Source of the DNA: Tribonema minus
Lineage: Eukaryota > Sar > Xanthophyceae > Tribonematales > Tribonemataceae
Assembly: GCA_017506865.1 (NCBI GenBank)
Contig: JAFCMP010000545.1
Span: 554,948 to 618,947 of the forward strand
Direction: 5' to 3'
Length of the DNA: 64,000 nucleotides
In this document: one piece after another, positions 14,501 to 64,000 of the stretch
Numbering within the stretch: position 1 is the stretch's first letter
How the letters are laid out: each line of letters begins with the position of its first letter
Made by a program: the position numbers and the translations under genes
Notes under the pieces: generated by a model
What the model saw: the letters and a program-made list of their open reading frames with translations, nothing else
Databases searched by the model: none
Told to the model about the DNA's origin: nothing

Positions 14501-17500
14501 TCGCTGCTTTCGCTGCGCCGTTTGCCAACTCTGCCTGTGTACCTGTTGTGATCATACCTGCCTACCCAGGCGGCGGCCAACGGCGTGCGCGGCGGCGGCG
14601 GCGATGGCGGACTGAGCGGCGCTGACGCGGCAGCAGTCGTCGCAGCAGCGATCAAGCGCAGCACAGGCGCCACAGTGCTCGGCAGCGGTCGCGAGCGTAT
14701 ACTGGACCCCTCAAAAGCATTCAACCCCGCAGAGACGCCAGTGGTGCCTGCTGATACGTACAAGGCGCCACCGCCAGATGCGCCGCCGCCGCAGGACCCC
14801 ATTTCGGCGGTTACGGCGAATGAAACGACGCTCGTCGTGGCCTGCGAGAGCGGCCTGGTGCAGGTATATTAAAATGGAGGGTATGTAGTAGGGTATGTAT
14901 GCATCATTGGGCTAGTTAGGGTTAGGGTTAGGGTTAGGCGGGGTAGGGGTTGGGGTTAGGGTTAGGCTAACCCAACTTGCTGTGTCATTGCGGTGTTGGC
15001 CCGTGTGCCATACGTGCATGTAGCTCATGGCGCCTTTGCCGCTGTCGCTGCTGGGCAGGCTGTTGGTGTTGCCTGCAAGTAGAGATATGGTACAGTACGG
15101 TACAAATATGCATGCATGATGTGCTGATGTCAACTGACGCCGCAACACCCACAATCGACCCCTTAGGGTTAGGTCTGAAAGGGCAACCAGGAACGAGGAG
15201 CGCAATTTGTCATGTGTATGTATGTGTGTGTGTATTATCTGCCAGCCCTCAGCCTGCCCCATCACTTCTGCGCATGCTGTCCCTCGTCGCTCATGCAGTG
15301 CGAACCTAACCCTAACCCTAGCTTGAGTACAAGGCTGACACGTTGGCGCTAACAAGACGATATGAATTCAACCCTAAGATGCCAGGACCGTACAAGGGGT
15401 GGGCACATGGGGCACATGAACTATACTGACAATATATATTACGTGGCCTGGTGCAGGTGTACGGGCTGCCGCTGCTCTCAGCGGAGGGCCAAATACGCTG
15501 CAGAACAGCGCCCACGCTACTGGCACTCAACTGTGACGGCTCACTGGTGGCTGCCATAGATAGACTGGGCATGCTTACCATTCTGGATCTGCTTGAGGCC
15601 AAAGACGGGGAGTTCATGGCCGGTGATGGGGTGTTGGGGGGGGACAGCATAGGGGGTTCTGCCTCTGCCTCTGCTATGGGCAGGAGGGCCAGGGGGCGGC
15701 GGGCGAAACGGCCACCGGTGGAGTGGGGGTCCTTTGAGAGAAAGGTTGGTTATTAATGCACTGCGTCATACTTCAGAGCAGCTTATTTAGCTGGACCCTT
15801 GTGCGGTAGCACATAGAGTATGAGTGTTCAGTTGACAAAGGGTAGGTATGCGCAGATGATCTGCACGGACGCGGAGATGGGTCCTGCGACACCGATAACT
15901 AGGGTTAGGGCTATACATTCGAGGGCGGTTACATTGAGGGTTCAGGACCTAAGAACATGGTGTTACCCTCTGTACCCTGCTGCACCGTGTGGCACTGCAT
16001 CTCGTTCCACTGCTTTTAAACCGTGCTACCTTACACCACCCTACCTTGGTGGCCTGCGGCATATGTAGGTATGTAGCACCAACCCTGCTTCGTCATGTGT
16101 CACTAATGTCCACATCATACAACTCACCTTGTCTGCCGTGGCAAGTGATACTATCCAGCAATACTACCACGGCATTGATTGGCAGTTTGTGACGTGATAC
16201 TTGGTACTCGTATCATCAATCTCATGTTGTGACCCCTGACACTTTAATCATTGGCTTGCCCAATCCTCATGGCGTCATCAGGCACTGCTGTTCACACCCT
16301 TGTGGCATGCTCTTAAGGCAACAAGCGCGCCATTAACTTTTTGACTCGTGGCCAAGGACTGCAGCAGCGGCGACCACGGTTATTGGTGGAAGGCACTTGC
16401 GGCTAACCATCCCTTGTCACCTAGAGCTCAACGATCTTTTGGTTCGTTTTTCATTAACACCTCCAACACGCCTGTTTCGCTCCGCAGGACACGTGGGACG
16501 TGCGGTGGAGTGAAGAAGACCCCGACCAGTTTGCCGTAATGGAAAAGACGCGCCTGGTCGTATTCAACGGCCTTCAGAGCGAAGAACCCGTCTCCTGCAA
16601 CGGCTACGTCTGCCAGTTCAAAGGGCTGTGCGTCAAGACAGCACTGCTGGACCAGATCATGGCCAGCCCCGAGTCTCTGGAGCCTGACTGGGTGACGGAG
16701 GTGGAGACAAAGGCGCTGAGCGATGCGCGCGAGGTCATAGCGTCGTCGGGGCTGGCGGCGGCGTATGCGGACGCCGCTGCGGGAGGGGCCACCACGCACA
16801 GGAGGCTGTGGCAGCTGATCGCGGAGAGCGCGCTTGAGGTGAGTGGGTGTGGGTTGTGTTCACTGTGAAGCAGCTCGTAGGCGTGACTTGTGTTCACGTA
16901 AAACAGCTCATTGCCTTGAAGTGGCGTGTTGCGGTAGGCAGAGGAGGGGCACAACTGCAGTTCTATCGCCTGCCTGCATCACATTGTTGCTGAGCGATGC
17001 GCTTGAGGTATGTATGTACAGGCACCTGTATGACATGACGCAGTCAGCATGGGTGCAGTAACACCATCGCGTCTGTCGCACGCATGCGCAGTCGCTGCTG
17101 TAGTGGATGCGTCTGCACGTAGCAGGATATGCATTTGGGTTGCTGAAAAGTGTGTAAACCGTATTGGTCTCACTGTTGAAGTTGAAGTTGGGCTGACCCA
17201 GATTGGGTCATTGCGCGGGCATCAGCCGGTCTTGACCAGGTATTCCAGAGCAAGGGAGAGACGATTGAGCTGGCACTGTTGATTGGCGGCAGCTTATAGC
17301 TGTGGGCAGTGTGTTGATGGCACCACCACGGCCATATACAGAATCACATGTATATGCACTGCGGCTCACAGGCTGTTGGGTCTGTTGCTTGTGCATCATG
17401 AGTGCACCACATTTCAGCGCATGAAAAGTTACTGCGACGCGGCGTGTTAGTTGTCCACACAGCCTACCTCACTCGCTTCGGCAAATGACGTGTCTGCTTT

Positions 17501-23900: not shown

Positions 23901-26900
23901 CAGGTTTCAAATCATTGGAGCTAGCTCAATGCCGCCCGAAAACAGTATCAGCGGCTGGCGTGCTTGATTCAAATCTCAAACAATGTTCTGCTTTGCAGAA
24001 CACCTCATCATGTGCCTGCAAGCGCTGCCGCACACAGCGTCATCCAATGAGTGCAATGATTATCATCCCCTGACCGCGTTATACACAAGGGAGCATTCAA
24101 TGACACTCTAACTAACTGCCTGATGCATAAAGCTCCCGTGAGACAGCCATTATACAGGCTTGAATGAGTGCCTGCCAGCCCGACCTGAGCCTCAGTGCTG
24201 ATGATAACAGGCGCTTCATCACCGGAAGTACATAGAAGCAACGTTCTACTCACACTGGCCTTTCCACTGCCGTTATTCCACAGGTGTTTCATCATCCTTA
24301 CCATGCGCCGCTCATGTACATTCATTTTGCGGTGTGTGCGCAGGTTCAACCTTGCCATCATCAGCGCCGTGTTGTGGCTGCATGAGGTCATTGGATTGGG
24401 ATACGCGCTCATGGTCCATGACTGGGTATGTTTGTCGTTCTGGGCTTGATGAACGGTCTCGGTCGCATCGAGTGGAGTCAACGTAGTCCAGCTTTTCAAA
24501 ACTAGCGTGTAAAAGACAAACTGATTGGGGTACTTCGCAGAGCTTTGAAGTATCGACACTGCAACGCTTATCCTGCCTGTTGCTTAGTGATGCCTTCTCT
24601 CACTGTACAGCAGAACAGGTCTTGTGGACACACCATGTATAGTTTCACCAACAACAGTGTTTCCCACCGCAAACATAGTTGCCAAGCCAAATGCCAGATT
24701 CTTTTACTGTAGTGTATTGTTCAATGTATACAACTTTTGAGTGAAGCTGACAAAGGCTTTTTGAATGATGATTATGCAAAACACCTGAGCACCTGACCCT
24801 AACCCTAACCCTAACCACTGCTTACATTACCTTGCACATTCTGTAGAAGCCATTTCACAGTAACCTACGTGCAATGAGAAGCAACCGCAGCTGCTCTCAT
24901 GACAGCATTTTAGCATGTTGTGTGTCTGCAGCAGTGTGCTTGGCCAAACTTCCACCAACAATCAAAATTTTCCAAGTCTACTTACTGGACCACAGCTTTT
25001 GAACAGAATGCATGTGTCGTGGGTCTCTCTTGTGTGACCACTGCAAGTGAGTACATGTTGCCCTACGTGCTTGCGCCTCTAGGGCCCAGCACGCATGCTG
25101 TTCAATCAGGTGAGATTATTGGTGCCTGACTGTACAGACGTCAAAGTCAAAGCCATGCGAGCTTGTGGCGTTCCAGTAGTGCACTTGCAGCTCAACTCAC
25201 TCGAACCTGCTAGCTTTCCTATCTGACACCCACTAGCTCTGAGCGCAGTACCACTCTGCATGCCTGCACCTGCTGCTGCTCCCTTGCGCAGCACACCGCC
25301 TGCATATTTGCGGTTTTGGCGGTGACCATGTTGGCACTGGTACGCCACGTCCCAACAATGTCCCAGGCAGCTGTCAGCGGCATGTGTGCAGTTTTGATGG
25401 CGCTGCTGCACTCGGTGCACCTCAGCGTGGTCATAGCGCACGCAGCTGGGCACAAGGCGCCGTCAATACTGCAGTACAGCATTTCGCCCATCGCCAACTA
25501 CATGACCATGATCATGGTGTTCGACTTTCTGCTGACACCATACTGGTTCACCAATGTAAGTGGTCTGCACTTGTGTCTGATGACAGGAATGATCGCTTCT
25601 TAGCAACCCTAAGCAGCTTGCCGTGCGGTTCATGTGCGTGGCAATGTAGCATACACAATCTGCTCAGAAACCGGCTTCAGACACTTGATGCTGCAATGCA
25701 ACTTAAAAAAGTACGCATGTGCTGCCAACCAACCAGAGATACTTCTGCTAGCACCATGAACCGCATCACACAACTGAGCAGGGCCGCTCATGAAGGTCTC
25801 TATTCGGATTTGTACTGCATGCTGATGCCTTGCTTGCACATACTGGACACAGAGGTGGGCAAGCTCCCTGTTCAGTCCTGTATACGTTTGAGCTGTTCCG
25901 ATACGAGAATCTGTGTAAGTCAAGCCTGCCATGCCAAAGCGAGTGCGCGCCTACGTGCACTACTTACATCGTGGTAGGCATATTTCCCTGTCATATACAC
26001 TGTGACCGGCCTGGCATGAGAGGCTGGGCTAGAAAGTGCTCGCTTCTGAAGCACCCAAGCAGCTCATTAACGAATGTGAAGGTCCATGATGGTCACCAGT
26101 TCAGCATCACGGATAGCGTTTAGAACTGGACTATCAAGTACCTCGAGGTATGCTAGTAGCAGTGCTGACAGTCATCACACTGCTCCGTCACATGTGCAGG
26201 TGCTGATCGCAACACCCATCAGCCTTGCCATGGCGTACCAGAATTCCTCTGGGGGGGCGCAGGTAAGATACATGCACGCTAAACTGACATCATGTATGCG
26301 AAGTTAAATATGGGGTCCCCTTTACCATTAGGGGTAGTGAAGGTCCTAAGGAGGGAGCTCAGAATTAAGACCACGCCTGTGCCTACGCTGCTCTGTAGCA
26401 GCCGCGGACGTAACTATTGCTGATTCCCTGTGGATATCAGAGGTAAGGTCGCGTGGTGTCACACACAGCGCGTGGTCCCCCCATGGCAAGGTGTCATGAG
26501 AGACACTCCACTTAATGTGTGTAGTGCCCTTCTGCTGATGGTTCTTTTAAATTGAAGATAATGGTCAATGCTGAGCCTGACAGTTGATGTTAAGTCCCCA
26601 TTTCAGTGAACGTTGATTTCTGTGCACTTGACCTCTAAGAAATGTTCAGTTGCAGTAGAACCTCGAGTCACACTGTTCAATTTAGAGTTTGAACGTTGCA
26701 CCGTCCCGCAGACCGAGCTGCAGCAAACTGGTGAAATCAACTCGAATGATTTGTGCGAATTCTCCACTAAATAGGTTGTTGAATTAAATTTTAATGTGCT
26801 GGATTTCATTTTAGCACTCGGGCTGTGAGCCAAATGATTCTTGCCACAGTGACACTGTGCAGGCTGCATTTTGCATAACAGCACCTCCTCCTTCACTGTA

Positions 26901-29900: not shown

Positions 29901-32821
29901 GGGGGCGTTTTTTGGGACTGTTGCAGTGGACTGCAGCACATTGTGTGACTGATTTTCCAAGCTCATACATCGCCATCGACTCGAGGAATTGTGCCTATGG
30001 CATGTTCTCTAGTAGATGCAGTTGCTGAACAATTAAAGAGTTGTACTTGTGGACTTGTAATCATAAAGGCTCCTCCAAAGGTGGCCGGGTGTCCTATGCA
30101 TTGCTGAGGTTTTAAGTTACTCCGATGCAGCAGCCTATACAACTGTCCAGACAATTTGCATGTGAGCCGAGCTCCTGTGAATTGCATATATGTCTCATGA
30201 CTGACTTGTGTGCTGTGTTTTCGTTTTCCTATCTGGCATAGGATATGCTGCTCCAGTTGCTTTACAACGCCAAGAAGCACGCAACTGGCACACGTCGCGT
30301 CATGACCACTGTTTCAGTAGAAGATGGCAAGTGGCTTCGCTTCACCGTGCGCGATTTTGGAACGGGCGTGGCACCAGCATATGCCAGGACCCTCTTCGAG
30401 AAGTACACGTGAGTGATGTCCCCTCGTCTTGTGCAACGTCATCGGGATTCCTCATCGGATGTAATTGATGTAGTATGTGTGCCATGCAATTAAGTTGTAA
30501 AGCATCACATTTTGAGTTCAAATGATTGATCTGGACAAATTCAACACCTGTTACATTTTGAGTTCATAAATTCAAATGAAACTACTGCGACAAATTCAAC
30601 CCCTGAACTCCAATCTTCCCAGCCTTCATGTTTATCAGGCTCATTTGTCCTGAGAAAATTGCTGGTAAATAGACTGCTTTACAAATCGAATATTGCACAA
30701 AGTCATGAAATCACATGCATGTGCTGACCATTCATTCCAGCTGCTTGATTATATACTGGAACACAAAATTGGCCCACGGGCTGTATCATGTGGTGTCTAT
30801 CCAGAGGGTCACTATTTTAAGCAACTTGTCCACAAAGAGCATGCACGGGCGCTGTGGTCGCTTCGCGGGGCCAATCTGTTAAGTTGCTGATGCCTGCCTC
30901 AAAATGCTGTATGCCCTTAGGCTGGGGAGCCAGACCAAGAAAACCAACTCTTCCCCCCAGGGAGGCCTTGGCCTTGGCCTTTTCAGCCTGTCTGTTAAGG
31001 CTCGTGCCCTCGGTGGCGATTACGGCGTCAATTGCTGGCCAGCAATACCCACTAGCCCATCTGCAGGGTCCGGGCGTGGTGTTGAGTTCTGGTTCATGGT
31101 TCCTCACACTGTGTGTGAGGACATCCTGGCACCTTGCACCGAAACGGTGGCCAGTGCCAGTGTACCTGTGGTCAGCCAGGGCACCAGTGCCTTTGTCAGG
31201 ACGTCACCATCACACAGGTGTGTACTTCACCTCAGACAAGCCTGCAGTAAGATGATGTTAATAGTTTCAGATCATGCCTGACGTTGCGGGATCTTACATT
31301 CTGGCATGATCTATTCCGCACGAAGGCCGCTATACACAAATTGCTGTTGGCATAGTTTGGCAGCAATGACACAAAGCTCAGATTTTGCCGGCAGTCTCTC
31401 CAGCGTTCGCAACGCCACATAGGCCATGACTTCTAAAAGTCTTCCTGACATGTGGCTTGTAGTCTTTCTGACATGTGGCTTATAGTCGTTCCCGGGATCT
31501 TGGCCCAGACTTGACCACAGGTGTAGAGAGGCGCTTGCCAGTGGGATCCAGGTTTTCATTTGGCAAACGCAGCAAGAGTGTGAAACTATACGGAACAGAA
31601 CTGCTACAGCAGCTTGTGCCAGCAAAGACGCACACCATCTCTTCACAAATAGCACCAAATAAGGTACGAACCAGTGTCGAGTGAGCATGCTGTACTACGG
31701 CACTGCTTCAGAAGCCATGCGGATGCGGCATTGTACCATTTGCGTACCGCAGCGCAAGCCTGCCTGGGCAATGTGTGGAAACCTAGGCCCTGCTAGGCGG
31801 TGAGTACTGATGCTACAGTGTTAAAACCACAGAAGTTCCTGGCAATAGTATTACTCTGTGCCCTGCACATTATTCGGAGACCAGCAAGAGGCTCGTCGTC
31901 AGGCTTCACAACATCGTATTCCTCGGTGTGCTGAGTCAGAAGTGTTCACAGAGATGGCGGCGACATAGGCCACATCATCTGCACACGATGGGTGCAGCGC
32001 CCACCGGCAGGCCCGGTACACAGAATCTGTTGCACGAACTTGGGCTGCAAGCGAACCCCGCTGGCTTGGAGCAACAGTGTGCGCGGCTACTACTTGTCAT
32101 CCTGGACGTAGTATACTTGGTCTATTAGCCAGTCTGATTGAAAGGGTATTTTGCTTGCAATTGAAGAGTGAGGATGTGCAATGTCAGACCTTTCATACAT
32201 TTTGGCTGTCACTTTGACCCTAACCCATATACTAACCTAGACCTAGGCTAACCCTGACCCTCATCCATATGCTAACCTAGACCTAGGCTAACCCTGACCT
32301 TAATCCTAACCCTAACGGTTACCCTGCGATGTGCCGACTCTCAGCCTGGTTGCATGTGCATGAGGTAACTTCTGGCAACAGCATATCGATGTACTAAAAC
32401 GAGCCGCACGTGTGCTGTGGCAACGCCTTGCAACAGCGTGCTGCACACAGGACAGGAGCTGCAACAACTGATACAGCGTGCTGTGCGGCGCTCCCGGAAA
32501 AGCGGCGTAGCACTCATGCAGAACAGCCTACGGAACAGTCTTCACAATGACTACGCAAGACGGCAGCGTGATGGCAGCGGACCAGGATCACCAAGCGTCC
32601 AGCGAGCTCATAGCAGCATAGGTATAGAACGCGCAGGCACCGATAAGGACAGAATGAAGGCAGATTTCAGGGCCATTGCTGGTGCACGAGCGGGCGATTT
32701 GCTGCAGGCGCAGCAACAGCGACATTCGCAGCAGGTGGAGCAACGTCCGTGGCAGCAGCCTGAGCATCAGCAGTTGCGGCAGCATCAACAGCAGCACAAC
32801 CAGCAGCATCAGCAACACCAC

Positions 32822-32862
<41 letters not shown>

Positions 32863-35274
32863 CCACGACCAGCAGGTCCAGCAGCTGCTGCAGCATGAGC
32901 AGCAGCAATGTCTAAGTGAGCAGCAGCATGTGCAACTGGTACAGCAGCAGCAGCAGCAGCCACATCATGAATGTTTTGTCCAGCAAACGCAACACAAAGA
33001 GCAAGACCACCAGTGCCAGCAACAGCAGCAGAGACAGCAACAGCTTTTCCTAGGACATGCGCAACACCACCAGCTGCCACCTATTGTGGGCTCTGCACCC
33101 ACAACTGCACGGATGCCTATCGCCGATGAACAAGTGACGACACCTCGGCCAGCGGTGATACCCCCAATTCAAGCAGATCTGCAGCATTTCATATCGTCAC
33201 CTCAGGCTGTCCCGCACACAACAGCAGCAGCAGCTTCACAGCCGCCGGTGGCAGTGGTGCTCGACGCAAATGACCAGGCTTGCAACACGCTACCTGACGT
33301 GACGTCCGCACCTGCTGACATGCGCTCTTCAGCCAGCACATTATCCAGCACAAACCGAAAGCCGCTGGTGCTTGTGGTGGACGACGTAGGCTCCATCCGC
33401 AAGGTTTTGGAACGAATGCTGACGCAGCGGGGCTACCGTGTGGTGCTGGCATGTGATGGTGCGGAGGGGCTCGGCGCTATGAAAACCTGCTCATTCCATG
33501 CGGTGCGTACCGCCTTCAAAGTATGACTAAACTGATTAGAGAAGGGGGTGATGTGGCTGAGGGCTGCACAAACCATACACTCATCTGGGCTCAGGCCGTT
33601 GCCCTCATTCGACCCTGTTTCTTCAAACATTGTCATTTTGAGGTGACCTCCAATAGTTGGCAGATTTATTGATACCATCCTTAGGTTGAGGCCAGGCACA
33701 AAACCAAGGCACGTGATGTGATTTCTACACATGCTGATTCTCCTATCTTGCTGACTTCGTAACCAGCAACATGCAATAGCTAAATGGCCTAATACATGGC
33801 TCGTGCTTAGGTTCCGCTTTGAGGAACTACCGAAAAACTGCCATATACGTAGTTCCAAATCAACTAGATGCAAACATCGCTACAGCATACGGACTCTTAT
33901 AAACCTGGAGTATGTCGGCATTAGTACCAGTGCTCCATCTTTCAATGGCAGATGTGCAGTGTGCCCAGCATGTTGGAATCTGTATGTTGTATAGCTCCAC
34001 AAAGCATGCATGCATGCCCCCCCAATAGCGAGCGGCCAGGATGCTCGCACACCTGAGATTAGGTACAAGCCTTGTGCCTTCACGTTACGTCAAATGCCCC
34101 GCTCTGCGCGACTGTTGGTCGCAGGTGCTGCTGGATCTAAATATGCCCCGCATGGGAGGCCTTGAAGCATTGGTGGAGCTTCGGCGTTGGGAGCGGGAGC
34201 AGCCGAAGTCGCGCCCTCTCCAATACGTCTGCGTCATTTCTGCAAACTGCTCGGAGGATGTTCAGGCGCAGGCGTATAGTGCTGGCACAGATCTCTTCCT
34301 TCCAAAGCCCATCGACCTGCCCATGCTGGTACGCTCACAGTGTGATCGTCAGCAGCATGTAGTGTGTTGACATTTGTAGATTTTGAGCTTCTATGGCGTG
34401 GCTGGCGCAGTTGCAAACGTCATCGTCCAACCATTCGTTGCCGTACCTTCACTGGTAGCTGTCATGGTGCTTAGGCTTAGGTTCCCTAGCCCTGACCCTA
34501 ATCCTAACCCTAACCCTAAGCTGTTAGAGGGACGAGCGGCAGCGGCAGATACTGCAGGCATGCCTTGACATACCGTCTGCCAATACTTATGTACTACTGA
34601 TGCATTTCAAGGCTGGTTTACAGCAGCCAGCTGCAACAATGCCAATTCTGCGTGGCTGCTGACACCAAATGCCTTCAAAGTTTCTTTATGACATGCTGAC
34701 ATCGGCCATGACGTTGGCACCCAATCTAGCAATCACGACGTGCTTGTGGAACAGCTCAACCACCTATTCATAAACAAGAAAAAAACATGCTCTTTAGCCC
34801 AGAAAATTTGCTGAACGCAATTGAATAGGCTGTCAAAGCAATTAATTGAGACACTTTGGCCTAGTCACAGGTATGCTTCTGCGCAGGACAATTTGTCTCT
34901 CATATCGTCAGCTACACGCGCACTGCTGCTCCATTGATGCACAGAATGTAGTGCTAAAGCGAGCAAACAGCATAGACCACAGCTGCGACTAGTTGCTTGA
35001 ACGTAAGCCTTAGGTCATCAGTCATGAAACCCTGCGTTATGGTAGGAAGCCACAATGCATCACGGCCATCTACTTCGAACAAGGACTTAAGTAGATCAAT
35101 CGACTGTTCTGTGCTGCAGCAAGCATGCATGTCAGTGCGGTTGCAGATGCTCACCAGTTCTAACCCTAAGTTCTTGATGCTGCCTTGATGCTTGAATGTG
35201 TTGCCCCACAGTTGAAGGCACTGGAGGCCCAGATGCATGTGCAAGTGCCATTGCAGCAGCAACTTTCAGTGTGA
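20960..35274 (+). CDS. Hybrid sensor histidine kinase, copy 1 (6-TM, Gln-rich linker, receiver), 15 exons
   Basis: Exons 20960-21358, 22282-22447, 23008-23044, 24344-24425, 25292-25555, 26200-26262, 27707-27868, 28192-28299, 28634-28755, 29529-29709, 30242-30408, 30921-31217, 32437-33502, 34125-34328, 35212-35274 keep phase: about 1126 residues. A disordered N-terminus precedes about six hydrophobic helices in exons 4-7 (e.g. RFNLAIISAVLWLHEVIGLG, HTACIFAVLAVTMLALV). Then the H-box AHDIGTPL (phospho-accepting His, exon 8), N-box LLQLLYNAKKH and G1 DFGTGV (exon 11), and G2 GGLGLGLFS (exon 12). After a Gln/His-rich linker with 12 pure CAGs comes a receiver: VVDD, DLNMPRMGG with the Asp, LPKPID with the Lys. 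All phosphorelay residues are present. The ligand is unknown. The start could instead be 20843. The exon 12/13 acceptor (32436) is chosen because it matches copy 2 and restores phase. Confidence 0.85.
21646..21950 (+). repeat. Dispersed repeat, copy 1 (intron 1 of kinase 1)
   Basis: Member of a window-specific repeat family. The consensus has GGGCATTGAAGG, CGTCAGYGCCTA, AGACTCTGTGCTGGGCCC, GGGATCAGAGG, GCGCCGTCCCCCCGT, AAGGTGTCATGAAAGA, a CTG-rich block, then GGCTACATGCAG and GTGAAGC. All copies found are on the plus strand. No coding capacity or terminal repeats are evident, so it may be a short non-autonomous element. Confidence 0.75.
24794..24818. repeat. Short interstitial CCCTAA repeat in kinase 1 intron 4
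   Basis: Three to four tandem CCCTAA units stand alone in an intron. Similar short patches are near 7858-7878, 18755-18786, 34488-34523 and 51719-51755. Confidence 0.85.
26324..26545 (+). repeat. Dispersed repeat, degraded copy (intron 6 of kinase 1)
   Basis: It keeps GTGCCTACGCTGCTCTGTAG, GGATATCAGAGGTAAGG, CCCCCCATGGCAAGGTGTCATGAGAGACAC and TGCTGATGGTTCT, with many differences elsewhere. It looks like an old copy of the family. Confidence 0.6.
32216..32320. repeat. Degenerate CCCTAA-like interstitial array
   Basis: It has several CTAACCCTGACC-type units and a duplicated segment, CTAACCTAGACCTAGGCTAA. It lies in intron 12 of the first kinase gene and is one of several telomere-like patches inside introns. 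Confidence 0.8.
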
Positions 35275-39262: not shown

Positions 39263-52496
<13,234 letters not shown>

Positions 52497-53515: not shown

Positions 53516-55274
53516 CTCTTGAAAGCAGCTGCGCTGCCCGAGTCCTGGGTCGTAGACCTAGACCCAACCCGGGATTGTGTGCGGCTGAGCAGCGCGCTGC
53601 AGTACATTCATCAGCGCTTGACTTTGAGGGGCGTATGTAAAAAACTGTCAAGCAGAGCATATGCAATATAGACACAAAATCAGCAGCGACGGCTCCCAGA
53701 GCACACAGGGTGTGCCTAAGCGCATCCCATTTCCACCCAACTACAGCTACCACTACGACCACTACAATACGCTCCTCCTGCAGTAGCGGACCTCCCAGCA
53801 ACAGCTTCACTGTGATCAAGTTCCAGCACACATGTCCGCCCTCAGCTCGCGGGCGACACTTCCAGCGCCATTGTGGTTGCAGCAAGCCCCACAATGTGGT
53901 GCCGTCACAGTTGGGTCCGGCAAAGCTGCTGCTGCTGCTGCTGCTTGCAAGCGCGCAGGCTTAACGCGCTCCAGCCCCCCCCCTTGCATCCTGATTCGGG
54001 CAACACTCCAAAGGAGTGGTTGTAGAAATCATGGGCGCCATAATCTATCGGCCCCAAAAAAGTGCCTCTGCATGCAGGTGCGGAACGAATGCAGGTCCTG
54101 CTGCTGCTGCTGCTGCTGCCAACGAGTCCACAAGCGCACTCCAATCCCTAGCGCCGCCCGAGCGCTGCTGTTGCTAGCAGCAATCCCACAAGCGCGCACC
54201 GGCCCCTTGCTCTGTCCTCCACATCTGGGCAACACTCCAGGGGAGTGGATGTATGTAGCAATCCTGGGCGCCAACAGGATAGTGCCTCTGCATGCTGCTG
54301 CCGACACTCCAAACGCGCTCTACTTCATAGGTCCATCCTGAGCTGCCAGCGCAGCTGCAGCTGCTGTCGTCGATCTCACAACCGCAATGCAAACAGCCAC
54401 AAGCTCCGTCGTCTGCATGTGAGCAACGAAGTTATGGGTGTGCTGCTGCTGGTGCCACAAGCTCCGTCGTCTGCATGTGAGCAACGAAGTTATGGGCGTG
54501 CTGCTGCTGGTGCTGCTGCTGCTGTTGGTGGTGCTGTCAGTGCTGGTGCTGCTGATGCTGCTCCAGACGCTGCTGTTAGTGCTGCTGCGGCTTCTGGCAT
54601 GGCTAATGCTCCAACAACTCCGTAAGCGCGCGCCAACCTTTAGCACCTGAGCTGCCGCTGCTGCTTTCCACAAAAGCGCTACAGCTCAGAGCTCCGTCCT
54701 CCGCATGCGGGCAGCTCTGCACCAGAGTAGACATGGCAATCCTAGGCGCCAACAGGCGCCTGCATGGAGGTCGATCATAGGTACCGTGCTTGCCTGTCTT
54801 CTGAAGTGCTGGTGCAGGTCTAGACGATCGCTGTTGCCACCAACCTTGCTTAGCCTGCTTATGAGTTGCTTCCTGCTCTACTGCACACCGTGGGCGCTGC
54901 ATGACGGTGACCGCAAGGCCGCGAGGCACTACGAGCCTCCGATACTTGTACAAGCGCGGGGCCCCTGAGCGCGTGACATGTGTCGAAATAACACGCGTCA
55001 CCCAGTGAATCTGTCTAGTGCAAGCTCTCTGAGCCTATCCACGTGTCAATAAAAAAGCCACGTGGCCGACTTCTCCGCCTAAGAGATCCGGCTTCTCCCT
55101 CGTGCCGAGGCACGCGGTGGCCGCAGAAGGCGGCGACCCCAGGAGAAATTCGCCAGTCCCCTAAGCTCTCGCCCAAGCCCCAGCCGCCAGCGCCTCTCGG
55201 CCTGCGTCGCTAAACCGTTTTGCACACCAACCACCGTAACCAAACTCGACGGAAGCCTGGGTCTACGACCCAGG
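53516..55274. repeat. Subtelomeric 1.73-kb unit A with inverted terminal motifs
   Basis: The left motif CCTGGGTCGTAGAC (53544-53557) is matched inverted by GTCTACGACCCAGG at the right end, where 55256-55274 also forms its own palindrome (CCTGGGTC/TAC/GACCCAGG). A conserved leader, GAAAGCAGCTGCGCTGCC, precedes the left motif. The interior is rich in CTG and repeats a 58-base segment (54397-54454 and 54455-54512). Near the right end are G-box-like CACGTG motifs and CAATAAAAAAGCC (55047-55059). Most of the unit is virtually identical to unit B, offset by 1781 bases. No convincing gene lies within, although a plus-strand frame of about 169 codons is shared. Confidence 0.85.
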
Positions 55275-55311: not shown

Positions 55312-57082
55312 TTGAAAGCAGCTGCGCTGCCGGAGTCCTGGGTCGTAGACCAGACCCAGACCCAACCCGGGTTTGTGTGCGGCTGAGCAACGCGCTGCTA
55401 TACATTCATCAGCACTTGACCTTAAGGCGTGTATGTTAGAAAGTGCGTCATGCAGAGCATATTGCATATAGACACAATATCATTAGCGACGACTCCCATG
55501 GCAGAGCGCCCCATTCCCTCCCAACTACAGCTACCACTACGACGACTGCATGCCCTCCCCCTGCAGTTGCGGAGTCCAGCAACTGCTGCACTGTAATCAC
55601 ACTCCAGCACACATGTCCGCCCTCAGCTCGCGGGTGACACTTCTAGCGCCATTGTGGTTGCAGCAAGCCCCACAATGTGGTGCCGTCACAGTTGGGTCCG
55701 GCAAAGCTGCTGCTGCTGCTGCTGCTTGCAAGCGCGCAGGCTTAACGCGCTCCAGCCCCCCCCCTTGCATCCTGATTCGGGCAACACTCCAAAGGAGTGG
55801 TTGTAGAAATCATGGGCGCCATAATCTATCGGCCCCAAAAAAGTGCCTCTGCATGCAGGTGCGGAACGAATGCAGGTCCTGCTGCTGCTGCTGCTGCTGC
55901 CAACGAGTCCACAAGCGCGCTCCAATCCCTAGCGCCGCCCGAGCGCTGCTGTTGCTAGCAGCAATCCCACAAGCGCGCACCGGCCCCTTGCTCTGTCCTC
56001 CACATCTGGGCAACACTCCAGGGGAGTGGATGTATGTAGCAATCCTGGGCGCCAACAGGATAGTGCCTCTGCATGCTGCTGCCGACACTCCAAACGCGCT
56101 CTACTTCATAGGTCCATCCTGAGCTGCCAGCGCAGCTGCAGCTGCTGTCGTCGATCTCATAACCGCAATGCAAACAGCCACAAGCTCCGTCGTCTGCATG
56201 TGAGCAACGAAGTTATGGGTGTGCTGCTGCTGGTGCCACAAGCTCCGTCGTCTGCATGTGAGCAACGAAGTTATGCGCGTGCTGCTGCTGGTGCTGCTGC
56301 TGCTGTTGGTGGTGCTGTCGGTGCTGGTGCTGCTGATGCTGCTCCAGACGCTGCTGTTATTGCTGCTGCGGCTTCTGGCATGGCTAATGCTCCAACAACT
56401 CCGTAAGCGCGCGCCAACCTTCAGCACGTCCTGAGCTGCCGCTGCTGCTCTCCACAAACGCGCTCCAGCTCCGAGCTCCGTCCTCCGCATGCGGACAGCA
56501 CTGCAGCAGAGTACACATGGCAATCCTGGGCGCCAACAGGCGCCTGCACGGAGGTCGGTCACAGGTACCTGCTTGCCTGTCTCCTGAAGTGCAGGTGCAG
56601 GTCTAGACGACCGCTGTTGCCATCAACCTCGCTTAGCCTGCTTACGCGCTGCTTCCTGCTCTACTGCACACCGTGGGCGCTGCATGACGGTGACCGCAAG
56701 GCCGGCGAGGCACTGCCCCGCGAGCCTCGGGACTGAGAGGCTTGCACACTGTACATTGTGGCAACCGCGGCCCCTGAGCGCGTGACACGTGTCAAATGAC
56801 ACGTGGCACCCAGTGAATCTGTCTAGTGAAAGCTCTCTGAGCTTGTCCACGTGTCAATAAAAAAGCCATGTGGCCCGCTTCACCGCCAAGAAATCCGGCT
56901 TTTTTCCCTCGTGCCGAGGCACACGCTGGCCGCAGACGGCGGCGACCCCAGAATGAATTCGCCAGTCTCCTAAGCTTTCGCCCAAGCCCCATCCGCCAGC
57001 GTCTCTCGGCCTGCGTCGCTAAATCGTTCTGCACACCAACCACTTTTTAACTTTCGACGGAAGCCTGGGTCTACGACCCAGG
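55312..57082. repeat. Subtelomeric 1.75-kb unit B with inverted terminal motifs
   Basis: Second copy: left motif 55337-55350, right palindrome 57064-57082, the same GAAAGCAGCTGCGCTGCC leader, the same internal 58-base repeat and CAATAAAAAAGCC at 56855-56867, exactly 209 bases before the right palindrome, as in unit A. The middle (about 55660-56450) differs from unit A at only a few bases, while the ends are more diverged. It abuts the Helitron. Confidence 0.85.
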
Positions 57083-57407
57083 AAATCCCCAAATCTTCAA
57101 CAAGGTATGTGCTTCATGCTCACACAGAAAATATCGAACCAGATTGTCGTCGTCTCAGGGCCCTTGGCCTTGCCGAGCAGAGCGCCGCAAATCTAGGCCA
57201 CGCGCGCGTATGCTCATGATCTGCGAGCGAAGCTCGCAGCAGGGCCCCTGGCCTTGCAGAGCAGAGTGAGAATCTAGGCCGCGCGCGCGTGCGCGTATGT
57301 GCCGGGAAGGCGACCCCGAGTTTGTTTGTTTGTGTTCGACAAATGAAAGTTTCCTGGGAAACTTTCGAACAATAAAAAAGCCGGACACGGCCACACAGTC
57401 TTTGCGC
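57083..57407 (+). promoter_or_regulatory. Leader of the Helitron with repeats, hairpins and a TATA-like motif
   Basis: It contains a direct repeat (GGCCCYTGGCCTTGC...GAGCAGAG...AATCTAGGCC, about 57159-57202 and 57242-57285), a small hairpin TGCGAGC/GAA/GCTCGCA (57221-57237) and a perfect inverted repeat with 10-base arms, GAAAGTTTCC/GGAAACTTTC (57346-57367). CAATAAAAAAGCC (57370-57382) lies 38 bases before the OTU-like ATG. The same 13-mer occurs in units A and B, hinting at a shared promoter. Confidence 0.6.
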
Positions 57408-59492
57408 ATGCACGTGCTTCTGGCTGTGGCTCTCTTTGGGCGACTGGCAGCGTTGGCAGCAATGGCGGCGATGCCAGCAGTGGCCTATCTGCCGAGTCCT
57501 GTGCCCTATGGCCATGCAAGGCGAATTGAGACTGAAGCCATGGGCAACTGTGGGCCCATCAGTCTGATGAATGGCGTGGCTATTGCTCAGGGGAATCAGC
57601 CTGCCAAAACCTACAGCGAGGCGGAGATCCGCGCATTCAAGGCACCGGTGGCAGACCTGGTGGTGGCGGACTTGACGGAGGGTCGCTACCGCAGCATTGC
57701 TGAGTTGCGAGAAGCTGCTGCAGCACAGCTGGTGAGTTTTTAAACCTGGAAAGCACGCACCACCAGGCGCCGCTGGTTGGATGAGTTGGCAGCTTTGGCT
57801 TCCTCCGGCGGGCTTCCCAGCTGACCGCACTGCTGCCGCTCTCTTCTGGCTTGCTGCTTTTGTTGGCAGCCTGAGCACGCTCTACCTGTGCTGCCTTCAA
57901 CACGTGAGCGCTGGGCCAATGCTGGTGTGCTGGATAGCTTGTGGCTGCAGCGGCGCGAGGCTGCAAGGAAGGATGGAGGCCGCGTTCCGCCCATGACATG
58001 GGCTGAAGAGCTGCTGGGGCACTTGGAGCGCCGCTTTCTCAACAACTATGCTTGGGTGACAAAATTTAACATTGTGATGATCATCATGGCATGGCCTCTG
58101 AGTCAGTCTGAGTCACTGGTGGGGTGTGCATCAGTGATATGCATTGCACTTCATGCATGCAACAGGTATTGATGCGCTGGAAGGACACTTTCCCTCACAT
58201 CATGCACCACGTGACATTGTATCCCGTTTGATCGACTCACTGTGATCCAGATGAGTGTCTACCACCTTCGATACTACAAGGAGCACCTGCGACGCAGCAT
58301 CTTTCTGTGGGGAGTCGACCCAGAGACCGGAGGCCTTCAGGTTGAGAATTCTGAAATGCCGTGGAGTTCCTTCATCGAACCAGGTGCGCGCCCGGAAGAT
58401 GCCATACATATTTTCCTTTACCCCATGAGCGTGACACATGAAGGGCAGCAGTGGGTGGTGCCTGTTCAACTCGGGACACCTTTTGCGTACAACTGGGGCT
58501 GCAATCACTGTGAGGCCCTAGACTTCAGCGCTGGGCGGCTACTGTATATGTGGCGTTCGTATGCGAATGTGATGCCATTTGTACGGCTGAGTGACCGCCC
58601 GGTGGTGTATGCGGGGCCTGGAATGCGTATTGGGCCAGCGCGTCAGACTTTGAAGGAGGCAGCAGACATGATGACTGTGAAGTTCAAAGATGCAACGATC
58701 AGCACACCCACCAAGAGTAAACAAATGCAGCGATTTGCAGCGAAGAAGGGCATTGACCCAGCAGTTGTGTCTGGCAACCTCAAGTCCCAAAAATTGAGGT
58801 ATGAGCCAACCCCAGATGAGCAAGGGTGGGAGACAGTTCGCAGCAAGAAGCGTAGAAAGGACAGGAATAGGTACGCATTGCAGCATGCCACCGAGGATGC
58901 TGCTGACACCTGTTTGCGTCTGGCGGCCAAGCGAGACCTTACCAACACGCTATGCCAGAAAGAGGCGCCTGCTGAAGCTGTTGCGCGCCGTAGTGCGCAG
59001 CAGCTGAGGCAAAGCGCTGCACGCGCAGGTGAGGCGCCTGCTCATACTGCAGCACGCCGTAGTGCGCAGCAGCTGAGGCGAAGTGCTGCGCGCGCAAGTG
59101 AGACGCCCGCTCATGCTGCAGCACGCCGGAGCAAAGAAGCTGAACGTGCCAAACGCGCACGCGACACCAACCCTGGGCCAACGGACCAGATCAGCCCTGC
59201 TCGTCCCCAGCCGCGGCGGCGGCCGAGCAGGCACTTTGCGGCGAGTGTAGGTACCGCAACAGCGGGGACAGCAGAGCTGAAGCGATCTTTTGAAGCTCTG
59301 CACAAGAGCTTTTTTGAGCCAGGCCCTGCATCAGAGTCCAACTCCGAGTCTGAGTCTCACCTTGCTCAGACGACTCGCTGTGCCTCTCAGGATGTGCCCA
59401 CACCCATGCATGAGCACATTTACACACGCAACGTAATGTCTGGGTTCCACGAGACAGTAAACTCCTACTATATTCAGCATTGCTCTGTTTGA
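57408..59492 (+). CDS. OTU-like cysteine protease part of the Helitron polyprotein, 4 exons
   Basis: Exons 57408-57731, 57870-58055, 58166-58210 and 58251-59492 join in phase through GT-AG introns, giving about 598 residues. The N-terminal ~25 residues are hydrophobic. EAMGNCGPISLMNG carries the candidate catalytic Cys, and WGCNHCEALDF (exon 4) resembles the OTU His motif. OTU domains are known in several Helitron lineages. Further on are three repeats of the ARRSAQQLRRSAARA type, common at Helitron N-termini, then an acidic Ser-rich stretch and HETVNSYYIQHCSV just before the stop. In related elements that Cys segment continues into the Rep protein, so the TGA at 59490 may itself mark a frame break. 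The OTU assignment is moderate: the Cys motif differs from the usual GDGNC. Confidence 0.62.
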
Positions 59493-62400
59493 AGCCAGGC
59501 ATGGTTCACAAAGCCACTGTCAGGGCGGCCTAAGCCAGCGGCTGATGAAAATTCGGCTCACGTTACTGCTGTGTGTGTTGCATGCGCCAAACAGCAGAAA
59601 AGCATAAACAAAAAAAAGCAAAACACCAATGAGCAAGATGCACCAACGCCGTCATGCCCGCTATTTTCTGCAGAAAACAACATGCACCCAGGCGCCCCCC
59701 CCCCCCCACCTCCCAAAACTGTCGCAAGTAGAAGAGATGTTGATTGCCCTGGCAGCACCAGTCATGAAAGTGCATCGGCTAAAGGGAGGGCAGCTGGGTT
59801 ACAAAGGGCACTGTGTAGCTTTGCCTCAGGATGTTGGAGAGTTTGCTAAAGAACTGCCGCGTAGGTACAGTGACTTGCCAATACTGCTGCTGATTCGCAA
59901 AGAAGTCAACTCAGTGACACGCGAAGAAGGCGCTGCAGCAGGACCTGATGAGCATGATGGCCAGGCTCAGGCTACTCGCAACGAAATTAAGGACTTCAAG
60001 GTCAGGCGCAATGCTGTGTTGCAATGGTTGAGCTTTTTGCAGCAGCAGAACCCCCATTACCGCCACATCACCATAGATCAGGCAGCAATTGCAGAGCTTC
60101 CTGAGAATGGCAGCGCATTTCAGGCCCTGGCTGAGCAAACAGCCGCTGGACTGGGGGGGCGCGCCAATAAGGTACTGTCAGTTGTAGACCGCGCCGTTGC
60201 GCTTGGCCGCCGGGCCGTCGAGCGCCAGCCTGCTAGTGAGCGCACTCAGTCCGGCACCCAGTCTGAGAGCCCCGCCAAATCTCGTTCCTCTGAATTGAAC
60301 ACAGAAGAATCCGACGCCTCTGACTCGGAGCCAGACTCAGATTGCCAATGGGAGCGCAACCGAGAGCGGGCCGCAGGGCCAGATCAGGGTGACGGAGAAG
60401 ATGCGCTGCCAGCTGTAACGGAATCATTTTGGCCAGTGGACAAGTCCGAAGAACCTGAGCAACAGCAGGTTGTAGCAGAGCTCCAGGAGGCACTACGTCC
60501 TTACTTGAAATGGCCTCAGGGCGGACCTGAGCCCCTGAATGAATTCAAGACACCAGGTCTGCTTGCAAAAGCGTTTCCCTGCATTTTTCCCACAGGCAAA
60601 GGAGACCCCACAGATCCCACTCGCAAAGTGGCTGTCACCTTGACGCAAGCAGCGAACCACCTGACGAAGTATGCCTATGTCAAGGTCACTGATACTGGCT
60701 TTCGTGAGCTCGTGTATCCTTTCGCATCGCATCCGCGAGCTCCACATTACGTCCAAAACATGCGTGAGCGGCACAGCCTACTGGGCCAAACTAGCGTGTA
60801 CATGCAGCAGAACCCTGGAGATGCAAACATGACAGTGCAGGAGCTGCAGGCTCTGGACGAGGAGGGCTTGCGGGATCTGGCGGGCCGCATGCAGCGGTAT
60901 GCAGCGAACATTACAGGCTCGGATGCTTACTTCAACAGTAGAAGGGAAGAGTTGGTGGCAGTGAATGAGCAGCTCGGTGTAGGCACGGTCTGGTTCACAT
61001 TCTCCTTCGCAGATAACCACAGCGCTGACTTGCACCAGCTGCTGCCCGGATCGAAACCTAGTGCAGACCCATCTGCGCGCTACGCAGCAGTCCGAGAAAA
61101 TCCGCACTTGGTGGATGCGTGGTTTTGCACTCGGCTGGCGCATTCTGTGGACTGTTTTTTCAAGTCCCTTGCTGGGCGCAGCGTGGGTGTGGTACAGGCT
61201 CGAGTACCAGATGCGCGCGACCATACATGCGCACGGCATGTGCAAACTGCGCAACGATCCGGGGCTGCCCAAACTTGCCAAAACAGTGCGTAGAGGTCGT
61301 TGCAGCACGTTTTCTCGCCGCCGCTGATGCCAGCGGCGCTCACCCGGTCGATCAGAAATGGTGGAATGGTGATGAGTACCCAGATGACGAAGATGAGTTG
61401 CTGGAGCGGGTGCAAGCTCACCCGCCATCAGAGGCAAAGGTGCGCAGGTTTCGCAAGCGCGTGCGTCAGGGGGTGGCGGCGGAGGCGAAGATTGTCAGCT
61501 ACGGAGACTGGTTAGTGTCAGCCACTCCTCAGACACCGCTGCCGGTTGATGCAGAAGCCGACAGACGTGATGAAAGCACCAAGTTTAACCCTGCAGCAGG
61601 CGCGGCACACCCGTGCAGTGTCCCTGCTGAGCCACTTCTCACGACTGGTAGGGGCGACAGTGAGGCCATGGCGGCAGACTACTCAGGAAAGTTGCAGGTC
61701 GTGCAGCGGCACTGGTGCATACCTGCTTACTGCAGCAAACCCAAGAAAAACAAACAGCCTGAGGGAGGACAACAAACCAGTGATGGTACTAGTAGAGGCC
61801 TCGCCTCGGAGTCCAAGCAACCGGCAGAGGCTGAGCTCGATGACCCGCTCGTGTGTCGTTTTGACTTTCCCCAGAAATTGCGAGAGCGTAACACGCTGCA
61901 TTTCAAGATCAACAGCAAAGGCAGAGTGGTGGGTACACTACTGCAGGCTCGCAACGACCGGTGGATGAACTACCACAACCGCACACAGTTGCAGGACTGG
62001 GGGGCCAATGTAGATATGCAGCTCATCATCGATGTCGGGAGAGCCATTGATTACTTGGCCAAGTATGCAACGAAAGCCGAAAAAAATCGGGTGGTGCTCA
62101 GGGCCTGCTACGTCAGACTGTACGGTACGCCGACCGCGATGAGCCGACAGCGAGGGTATTGCGCTCAGTCATGCTGAAGGCACACGGTCAGCGCGACATG
62201 GGTGCTCAAGAGACAGCGGACCTTAACCTGAACCTGTCAGTCGTCAGTTGCACAGAGCAGTTTGTGCGTGTGTATCTGAATTAAAGCAGGACTGTGACGC
62301 GCCGACTCAGGAAGAGCGCCAACAAGACGAAGGGGTCCCATAATCCCGGAAGTGTCACCAGCAGCAGCGGCGATGGTGATGACAACCAGCCTGCCTTCCA

Positions 62401-63335
62401 CATCACACTGGAGGAGGCATACGCGAGCCGCATGGACGACAACCTCTGGGCAAGACCAGGATTGCCGGGCGAGCCCAAGCCTAAAGATGACATGCTACGA
62501 ACAATGTCATACCAGCAGTTTGCAGCTGAGTACTATGTATACAGCCCCAGGCAGAAGCCGGTGCGTGATGTGTTGCAAAGGCATGACCGCAGACGTGTGG
62601 TGCTTTTCTTCCCCAAGAGGTCCTCCAAGCGTGCTGGGGAGAAATACTGGGAGTAACTGCATGTACGCATTGTTGCGCTTCAGACCATGGGTGGGTGGCA
62701 GGTACAATGCATGGGGCATGGCAGCGCCACCTGATGGCGGAGTTGTTGCCGAACCCGACCATGCACACGTCATTCGAGAGTGGGAAACCTTCGTTGAGCA
62801 AAGCACCAGGGCTGCTCGTGCGCAGGAGCGGGAGAGAGAAGGGGGCCCAGCGGCTGGTGCCAGCGACAGCTCCGATGATGGGTGGGGCCACGATGACGCC
62901 CCAGGCGGGCTTGAGCGCGAGCTTGAGCAGGCACGCCGTGCTATCCGCGAGCGTCGCCAGCGGCACAACAGGCACAACAGGCGTCGCAACCGCAATGACC
63001 AGGATGCATCTGTCAGTGATACCGAGTCTCGTGCAAGTTCAAGCTCCACCGACAGCCCGCGCGCCTGGGATCTGGACTCTGACCTCGAAGGTGCAGCAGA
63101 TGAGTGGATGGATGCATGTCGCGACGCAGGCGCCGACCGTGACGCTGCACGAGACGACCTGGAAGTAGACTGGGCACGCTCAGGCGTGGGCTGGGTAGGT
63201 GGAGAGGGTGGTTCATTCGAAGGGATTTCGGAGCAGGGCAAGATTGAACTCTCCAAGATGTTGGAAACTAAGAAGGCGGCAGAGGCAGAGGAGGTGCTGG
63301 AGTCACTTGAGGCAGACAGGCGCGCTGTGGGTTAG
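59493..63335 (+). pseudogene. Helitron Rep (HUH-Y2) gene, frameshifted and cut off at the telomere
   Basis: In order: CVACAKQQ...FSAENNMHPG, a DUF6570-like domain (LSQVEEMLIALAAPVM, VHRLKGGQLGYKGH, ALPQDVGEFA, LPILLLIRKEV), the Helitron-like N domain (FPCIFPTGKGDP, GTVWFTFSFADNHSADLH), an HUH motif IHAHGMCKL (about 61226) and two Tyr in DYLAKYATK (about 62048). Then QRDMGAQETADL, ASRMDDNLWARPG and CMYALLRFRPWVGG follow. Frame changes are needed at C13 (59695-59707), T6 (about 61155-61160), near AAAA at 61278, A7 (62080-62086) and about 62640-62656; an in-frame TAA is at 62282-62284. Most shifts fall in homopolymers, so sequencing error is possible for some; the TAA is not of that type. The last frame stays open to the telomere. 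No helicase motif is present. Confidence 0.82.
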
Positions 63336-63621
63336 GGTTAGGGTTAGGGTTAGGGTTAGGGTTAGGGTTAGGGTTAGGGTTAGGTTAAGGTTAAGGGTTA
63401 GGGTTAGGGGGTAGGGTTAGGGTTAGGGTTAGGGTTAGGTTAGGGTTAGGGTTAGGGTTAGGGTTAGGGTTAGGGTTAGGGGTTAGGGTTAGGTTAGGGT
63501 TAGGGTTAGGGTTAGGGTTAGGGTTAGGGTTAGGGTTAGGGTTAGGGTTAGGGTTAGGGTTAGGGTTAGGGTTAGGGTTAGGGGGTTAGGGTTAGGGTTA
63601 GGGTTAGGGTTAGGGTTAGGG

Positions 63622-63662
<41 letters not shown>

Positions 63663-64000
63663 GGTTAGGGTTAGGGTTAGGGTTAGGGTTAGGGTTAGGG
63701 TTAGGGTTAGGGTTAGGGTTAGGGTTAGGGTTAGGGTTAGGGTTAGGGTTAGGGTTAGGGTTAGGGTTAGGGTTAGGGTTAGGGTTAGGGTTAGGGTTAG
63801 GGTTAGGGTTAGGGTTAGGGTTAGGGTTAGGGTTAGGGTTAGGGTTAGGGTTAGGGTTAGGGTTAGGGTTAGGGTTAGGGTTAGGGTTAGGGTTAGGGTT
63901 AGGGTTAGGGTTAGGGTTAGGGTTAGGGTTAGGGTTAGGGTTAGGGTTAGGGTTTTTAGTTTTTAGGGTTAGGGTTTAGGGGTTAGGGGTTAGGGTTAGG
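63329..64000 (+). repeat. Telomere: TTAGGG array
   Basis: About 110 units of TTAGGG, reading toward the window end, give the G-rich strand orientation expected for a right chromosome end. Variant units (TTAAGG, TTAGGGG, TTTAGGG) cluster near 63360-63420 and at scattered single sites. The last 60 bases contain GGTTTTTAGTTTTTAGGG and several irregular units, which could be real or assembly-end noise. Confidence 0.97.

What the first reader, a model, noticed from the sequence alone, without database searches (positions are those of the whole stretch)
57083..64000. Chromosome end formed inside a Helitron: Rep gene runs into telomere repeats before the helicase
The Helitron Rep frame stays open up to the base where TTAGGG repeats begin (about 63329), and the Pif1-type helicase that follows Rep in the family is absent. 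Either the chromosome broke within the element and was healed by telomere addition, or the element repeatedly targets telomeres and is eroded from its 3' side. The junction (GCGCTGTGG/GTTAGGG) shows only a few bases of possible homology.
Basis: partly seen in the sequence, partly recalled or inferred. Interest (0 to 1): 0.82.

Follow-up and report, generated by a model that had tools for sequence, protein, structure and literature searches.

The report
Broken transposon capped by a telomere
A chromosome of an unnamed eukaryote appears to have lost its tip inside an old, damaged transposon and to have been capped with new telomere repeats, an ordinary kind of repair that two other chromosome ends of the same genome show more clearly.

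Summary
The window ends at a contig end in about 670 bp of TTAGGG, and a Helitron Rep gene (DUF6570 + Helitron_like_N) runs into that array about where the helicase starts in a relative.

Corrections:
- The Rep frame is not intact. It has frame changes near 61.12-61.17, 61.30 (perhaps an intron), 62.08-62.10 and 62.65 kb, and a stop at 62,282.
- An OTU domain is not supported by profile search.
- The element is single copy, no Rep relative was found at a telomeric end, and no perfect three-unit telomere array lies in the 38 kb inside the junction. Telomere targeting is therefore not supported.

Best explanation: a terminal break inside a decayed Helitron, healed by telomere addition at a GGG. 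Two other ends have unbroken copies elsewhere, so their cut points can be read exactly. C12 keeps a native GGG, then TTAGGG begins. C28 is cut inside an 18-copy repeat with 1 nt of overlap. The nine ends compared share no subtelomeric satellite.

By-product: hundreds of TTAGGG array starts, many internal, often C|TTAGGG, as at several telomeres. This hints that one enzyme acts at breaks.

Interest is moderate; this is a new member of a known kind.

The parts
57219..57364 (.). dispersed repeat of about 145 bp, inside the finding's coordinates, not specific to the element
   Evidence: most of the 42 matches cover this stretch (query about 128-286)
57270..57743 (+).
58215..59492 (+). ORF rich in Arg/Lys/Ala repeats, resembling by eye the N-terminal part of relatives' Rep; no Pfam match
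59388..59696 (+). weak match (about 26-29% identity) to the cysteine-rich stretch before DUF6570 in relatives
59608..61293 (+). main Rep ORF: DUF6570 at about 59695-60090, Helitron_like_N at about 60721-61176
61123..61168 (+). frame change in Rep
   Evidence: three relatives
61223..61237 (+). IHAHG, HUH-type motif (motif name recalled)
61301..61470 (+). frame change beside about 90 extra bases; possible intron
62052..62075 (+). YLAKYATK, the tyrosine motif of Rep (recalled)
62082..62100 (+). frame change in Rep
   Evidence: two relatives
62282..62284 (+). in-frame TAA in Rep
62298..63335 (+). last open frame, holding LLRFRPW at 62670 and running into the telomere; the Rep-helicase linker
63329..63331 (+). 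GGG at the junction, native or telomeric (cannot be told apart here)
63332..64000 (+). TTAGGG telomere array up to the contig end

Best explanation
This chromosome end is a healed terminal break. A single-copy Helitron whose Rep gene carries frame changes and a stop lay near a chromosome tip. The chromosome broke in the linker between Rep and helicase; the distal part was lost; TTAGGG repeats were added to the broken end, probably by telomerase starting on an exposed GGG. Shown: the truncation, the frame damage in this assembly, single copy, the direct junction, and two other ends of this genome with the same architecture against unbroken copies. Inferred: that telomerase rather than capture of telomere DNA made the array, that the C542 GGG is native, and that Rep decayed before the break.
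For: Array at the very contig end, of a size like seven other ends. No intact or second copy of the element. The DNA stops about where a relative's helicase starts. C12: 786 bases matching a C102 copy (96% over the first 606, 93% over the last 219), which continues GGG|AGCTGC where C12 has GGG|TTAGGG. C28: cut inside a repeat with 18 copies at 99% including itself; all three copies read past the point continue GGCACC|TACCAC where C28 has GGCACC|TTAGGG. C542 has the same GGG|TTAGGG junction as C12. Healing at 1-5 nt of homology is described in PMC2246262 (passages).
Against: No uncut copy of this Helitron exists to prove the C542 cut point or where its GGG came from. No reads were available. 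The outermost repeats are irregular. Frame changes may be sequencing error. Recombination with another telomere would leave the same junction.
Confidence: 0.78

Rival explanations
1. Telomere capture: the broken end acquired its TTAGGG array by recombination or copying from another chromosome end, not by telomerase.
For: The junction alone cannot tell the two apart. No subtelomeric DNA need come with the array.
Against: The nine ends compared carry no shared non-telomeric DNA next to the array (one 77-bp stretch shared by C2 and C41 is about 600 bp or more from the array); C12 and C28 show 3 and 1 nt of overlap, as healing predicts.
Confidence: 0.1
2. Assembly chimera: telomere reads were wrongly joined to an internal Helitron.
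For: No reads could be inspected; the outermost repeats are irregular.
Against: The array is at the very contig end and in the size range of seven other ends. The sequence has no second copy to cause a misjoin.
Confidence: 0.07
3. The Helitron family targets telomeres and this is one insertion eroded from its 3' side.
For: Rep points to the telomere. Helitron-like elements occupy 11 of 12 telomere extensions in Oscheius tipulae (PMC8022731, passages).
Against: Single copy. No Rep match on the other eight contigs whose telomeric ends were read. No perfect three-unit array on the inner side for 38 kb. The near-end copies of a second family sit at assembly breaks without TTAGGG (6 of 7 read).
Confidence: 0.05

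Closest known systems
Chromosome healing (de novo telomere addition at a terminal break)
   Same: Telomere repeats start directly in ordinary DNA; short overlap; C12 and C28 have uncut copies. Described in PMC2246262 (passages).
   Different: Nothing essential; the enzyme was not tested here.
Helitron (DUF6570 / Helitron_like_N type)
   Same: Rep domains and motifs; relatives named from Laminaria and Ectocarpus.
   Different: Broken Rep, no helicase, no 3' end.
Telomeric Helitron-like elements of Oscheius tipulae
   Same: A Helitron next to a telomere.
   Different: There the element recurs on 11 of 12 telomere extensions (PMC8022731, passages); here it is single copy.
Subtelomeres of Ectocarpus
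   Same: TTAGGG telomeres.
   Different: Ectocarpus has a satellite of about 98 bp at all but three resolved ends (PMC11541908, passages); the nine ends compared here share none.
Interstitial telomeric sequences inserted at breaks in mammals
   Same: Short internal TTAGGG arrays with short overlap or fixed starts.
   Different: No empty site was compared for the internal arrays here (PMC2246262 passages; PMC8537989 and PMC7215372 seen only as search listings with abstract starts).

Membership tests
Helitron | Rep with Helitron_like_N (HUH) domain | tested here: met
   PF14214 E 1.9e-12; IHAHG and YLAKYATK present, in different frames
Helitron | Pif1-type helicase after Rep | tested here: not met
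   absent here because the DNA ends; related families on C516 and C530 have PIF1. It is therefore a fragment of a Helitron, not a working one
Helitron | TC...CTRR termini with 3' hairpin | not tested
   the 3' end is missing; the 5' end was not sought
Telomere-targeting transposon | repeated presence at telomeres in one orientation | tested here: not met
   single copy; no Rep match on the other eight sampled telomeric contigs
Telomere-targeting transposon | telomere repeats on the inner side of the insertion | tested here: not met
   no perfect three-unit array from 24,813 to 63,300; only degenerate runs at 34.5 and 51.7 kb
Chromosome healing | telomere repeats begin directly in non-telomeric DNA with 0-5 nt overlap, against an uncut copy | tested here: inconclusive
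   met at C12 (3 nt) and C28 (1 nt); at C542 the junction fits but there is no uncut copy
Chromosome healing | made by telomerase | not testable with these tools
   inferred from the junctions

The most novel reading that the evidence does not exclude
In this species telomerase acts freely at double-strand breaks. Many or most chromosome ends are healed breaks in genes or transposons, without a subtelomere, and many internal TTAGGG arrays are breaks rejoined after the same synthesis. The shared start C|TTAGGG (often GC|TTAGGG) would reflect pairing with the flank of the telomerase RNA template, predicting an RNA with 5'-CCCUAAG(C)-3'.
Probability: 0.28. Interest if true: 0.6.

Novelty: new member of a known kind. 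Interest (0 to 1): 0.33.

Why it matters
Healed ends in a non-model eukaryote show how chromosome tips turn over. The paired junctions C12 and C28 give exact cut points, and the start bias of TTAGGG arrays gives a concrete prediction about the telomerase RNA. The Helitron itself is incidental: a damaged element that lay where the chromosome broke.

Tried and rejected
Telomeric second Helitron family: seven PF14214 copies with open frames of 1209-2373 aa lie within about 11 kb of contig ends (contig lengths). Six of the seven ends were read and hold no TTAGGG or CCCTAA, so they are taken as assembly breaks at repeats. The seventh, C342 (a 19.5-kb contig), was not read.

Rep in the other telomeric ends by tblastn: no hit, but the tail of C542 itself, included in that search, also gave no hit, because the 15 relatives hardly cover that part. 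The test is uninformative. The claim of absence rests on the whole-genome searches instead, which score only their best candidates.

C157 fragment: a 207-bp piece 81% identical to window 61812-62018, also present inverted, with short degenerate TTAGGG-like runs beside it. No perfect three-unit array is there. Not pursued.

Lost half elsewhere: PIF1 hits without a PF14214 partner, C516 and C79, were read in part. C516 is of the family of C530; C79 showed no Rep-like ORF in the 1.1 kb read. Neither looked like the missing half, but only short stretches were read.

C130 as a ruler for the Rep-helicase distance (582 nt between MPCR and GGTGKT): dropped, because I matched its motif to LLRFRPW by eye only.

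OTU domain.

Species: the window's WDR35-like ORF scores best with brown-algal proteins among named hits (Choristocarpus 62%, Laminaria 62%, Sphacelaria 63%), but Phytophthora (70% over less of the query) and other groups also match. A stramenopile near brown algae is a weak inference.

Full report
WHAT IS THERE. The window is positions 554948-618947 of contig C542, which is 618,947 bp long, so its right edge is a contig end. TTAGGG repeats fill 63329-64000. The DNA before them is a Helitron remnant: ORF 59608-61293 matches DUF6570 (E 1.3e-25) and Helitron_like_N (E 1.9e-12). The protein search returned 15 relatives at E 0.001 (7,998 candidates scored), mostly with the same two domains, among them proteins named from Laminaria digitata and Ectocarpus.

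STATE OF THE GENE. The Rep homology jumps frames. A frameshift-aware alignment to P0004 and P0006 puts changes at 61123/61162, 61304/61301 and 62100/62082 and a stop at 62282 in both. A third relative, P0009, aligned only over 60328-61297, shows the first change at 61168. The second change lies beside about 90 extra bases and may be an intron. A last change falls between the ORF ending at 62656 and the ORF 62298-63335 that holds LLRFRPW. The frame that runs into the telomere is only the last piece. Sequencing error cannot be excluded as the cause of single changes.

WHERE THE CUT LIES. LLRFRPW starts 658 nt before the last base ahead of the array. In C516 the matching stretch (27% identity over 70 aa, E 4e-05 for that one comparison) starts 641 nt before Walker A, and C516 and C530 have PIF1 there. 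So the DNA stops about where the helicase should begin; the linker here may be somewhat longer.

COPY NUMBER AND TARGETING. In the DNA search of 57083-63328 (42 matches listed including itself, 40 of 43 candidates scored) nearly all other matches cover only a dispersed repeat of about 145 bp. The exceptions are a 207-bp stretch at 81% on C157, a match on C525 that extends about 150 bp beyond the repeat, and 110 bp on C511. Rep relatives: 9 matches including itself and 15 PF14214 matches including itself. Seven of the latter, one family, lie near contig ends; six of those ends were read and none has TTAGGG. Between 24,813 and 63,300 of the window there is no array of three or more perfect telomere units; degenerate six-unit runs lie at 34.5 and 51.7 kb. 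An element inserted into a telomere should have repeats on its inner side.

OTHER CHROMOSOME ENDS. One search counted 511 array starts and listed the first 100, down to C45. From these I took telomeric contig ends and read the adjoining 0.7-1.2 kb of eight: C2 and C4, C7, C12, C21, C28, C41 and C43. C3, C11, C30 and the uncertain C10 were not read. None of these eight contigs appears among the Rep matches. Compared all against all, the nine ends including C542 share only TTAGGG, apart from one 77-bp stretch shared by C2 and C41. C2 next to its array matched nothing else; further in it carries a dispersed repeat (40 of 1229 candidates scored). C21 lies in an ankyrin-like ORF (Ank_4 E 9.9e-05) and has only partial matches elsewhere. 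C28 lies in a repeat with 18 copies at 99% counting itself (40 of 49 candidates scored). C12 has a copy on C102. The remaining ends (C4, C7, C41, C43) were not searched against the genome.

TWO EXACT CUT POINTS. C28 ends ...GACGGCACC|TTAGGG; the three copies read past this point (C13, C191, C368) all continue ...GACGGCACC|TACCAC, an overlap of one T. C12 ends ...ACGATGCTGGG|TTAGGG; the C102 copy continues ...ACGATGCTGGG|AGCTGC, so the GGG is native and repeats were added to it. C542 has the same GGG|TTAGGG junction, but no uncut copy proves where its GGG came from. Healing by telomerase, favoured by 1-5 nt of homology at the break, is described in PMC2246262 (passages read).

START BIAS. Of the 100 listed array starts, 69 are internal, 30 lie in terminal arrays and 1 is uncertain (my labels). 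Of the 69, 34 begin exactly at TTAGGG: after C in 31, T in 2, A in 1; the base before that C is G in 18 of 31. The pattern required a base other than T five places back, which biases the sample. Whole-genome counts without that requirement are C 197 and A 74, a weaker bias; T was not counted, and both counts may include variants inside longer arrays. Junctions C2, C7, C21, C28 and C43 read C|TTAGGG; C4, C12, C41 and C542 have a G run; C3 shows C|TTAGGG too but has further arrays inward and is left out. At C28 the C was already in the broken DNA. I take this as a hint that one enzyme made both telomeres and internal arrays, not as proof; no empty sites of internal arrays were compared.

LITERATURE. 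Helitron-like elements at telomeres are known from Oscheius tipulae (PMC8022731, passages). Ectocarpus has a subtelomeric satellite at all but three resolved ends (PMC11541908, passages). Three searches (25 of 79 papers listed; 6 of 6; 7 of 7) showed in titles and abstract starts no paper on a Helitron cut by a healed end; most were not opened.

VERDICT. Most likely a decayed Helitron cut by a healed chromosome end, in a genome where at least two other ends have the same architecture. After rechecking I dropped and the C130 distance as evidence; the odds hardly change.

Noticed in passing
genome-wide; e.g. loci L002, L003, L008, L009; window 14915-14938 and 24796-24813: Many short internal TTAGGG arrays. 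Starts exactly at TTAGGG are preceded by C in 31 of 34 internal cases listed; genome-wide C 197 against A 74. In 29 loci fetched for another repeat there are 3 arrays of three or more perfect units in 91 kb.
   Followed up: partly
C28:462780-463566 and 17 other places: A repeat with 18 copies at 99% identity, probably a recently active transposon; one copy is cut by the C28 telomere.
   Followed up: partly
C19, C26, C104, C111, C138, C342, C519: A second Helitron family with long open frames (1209-2373 aa) and near-identical PF14214 scores, at contig ends without TTAGGG, perhaps recently active.
   Followed up: partly
window 57219-57364: A dispersed repeat of about 145 bp with tens of matches in the genome.
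   Followed up: no
L049 (C157:1031907-1032121 and an inverted second copy): A 207-bp piece 81% identical to this Helitron, present twice in inverted order around a GGAGTCGGAGTC-rich stretch.
   Followed up: no
window 32369-33526 and 49478-50830: Two similar ORFs with long glutamine runs and a response-regulator-like end, apparently duplicated (domain named by eye).
   Followed up: no
window 53787-54625 and 55487-56406: A direct duplication of roughly 0.9 kb, seen as near-identical ORFs and 58-bp tandem repeats just inside the Helitron.
   Followed up: no
C3:663-1550: Telomere arrays interrupted near a contig start, with further arrays inward.
   Followed up: no
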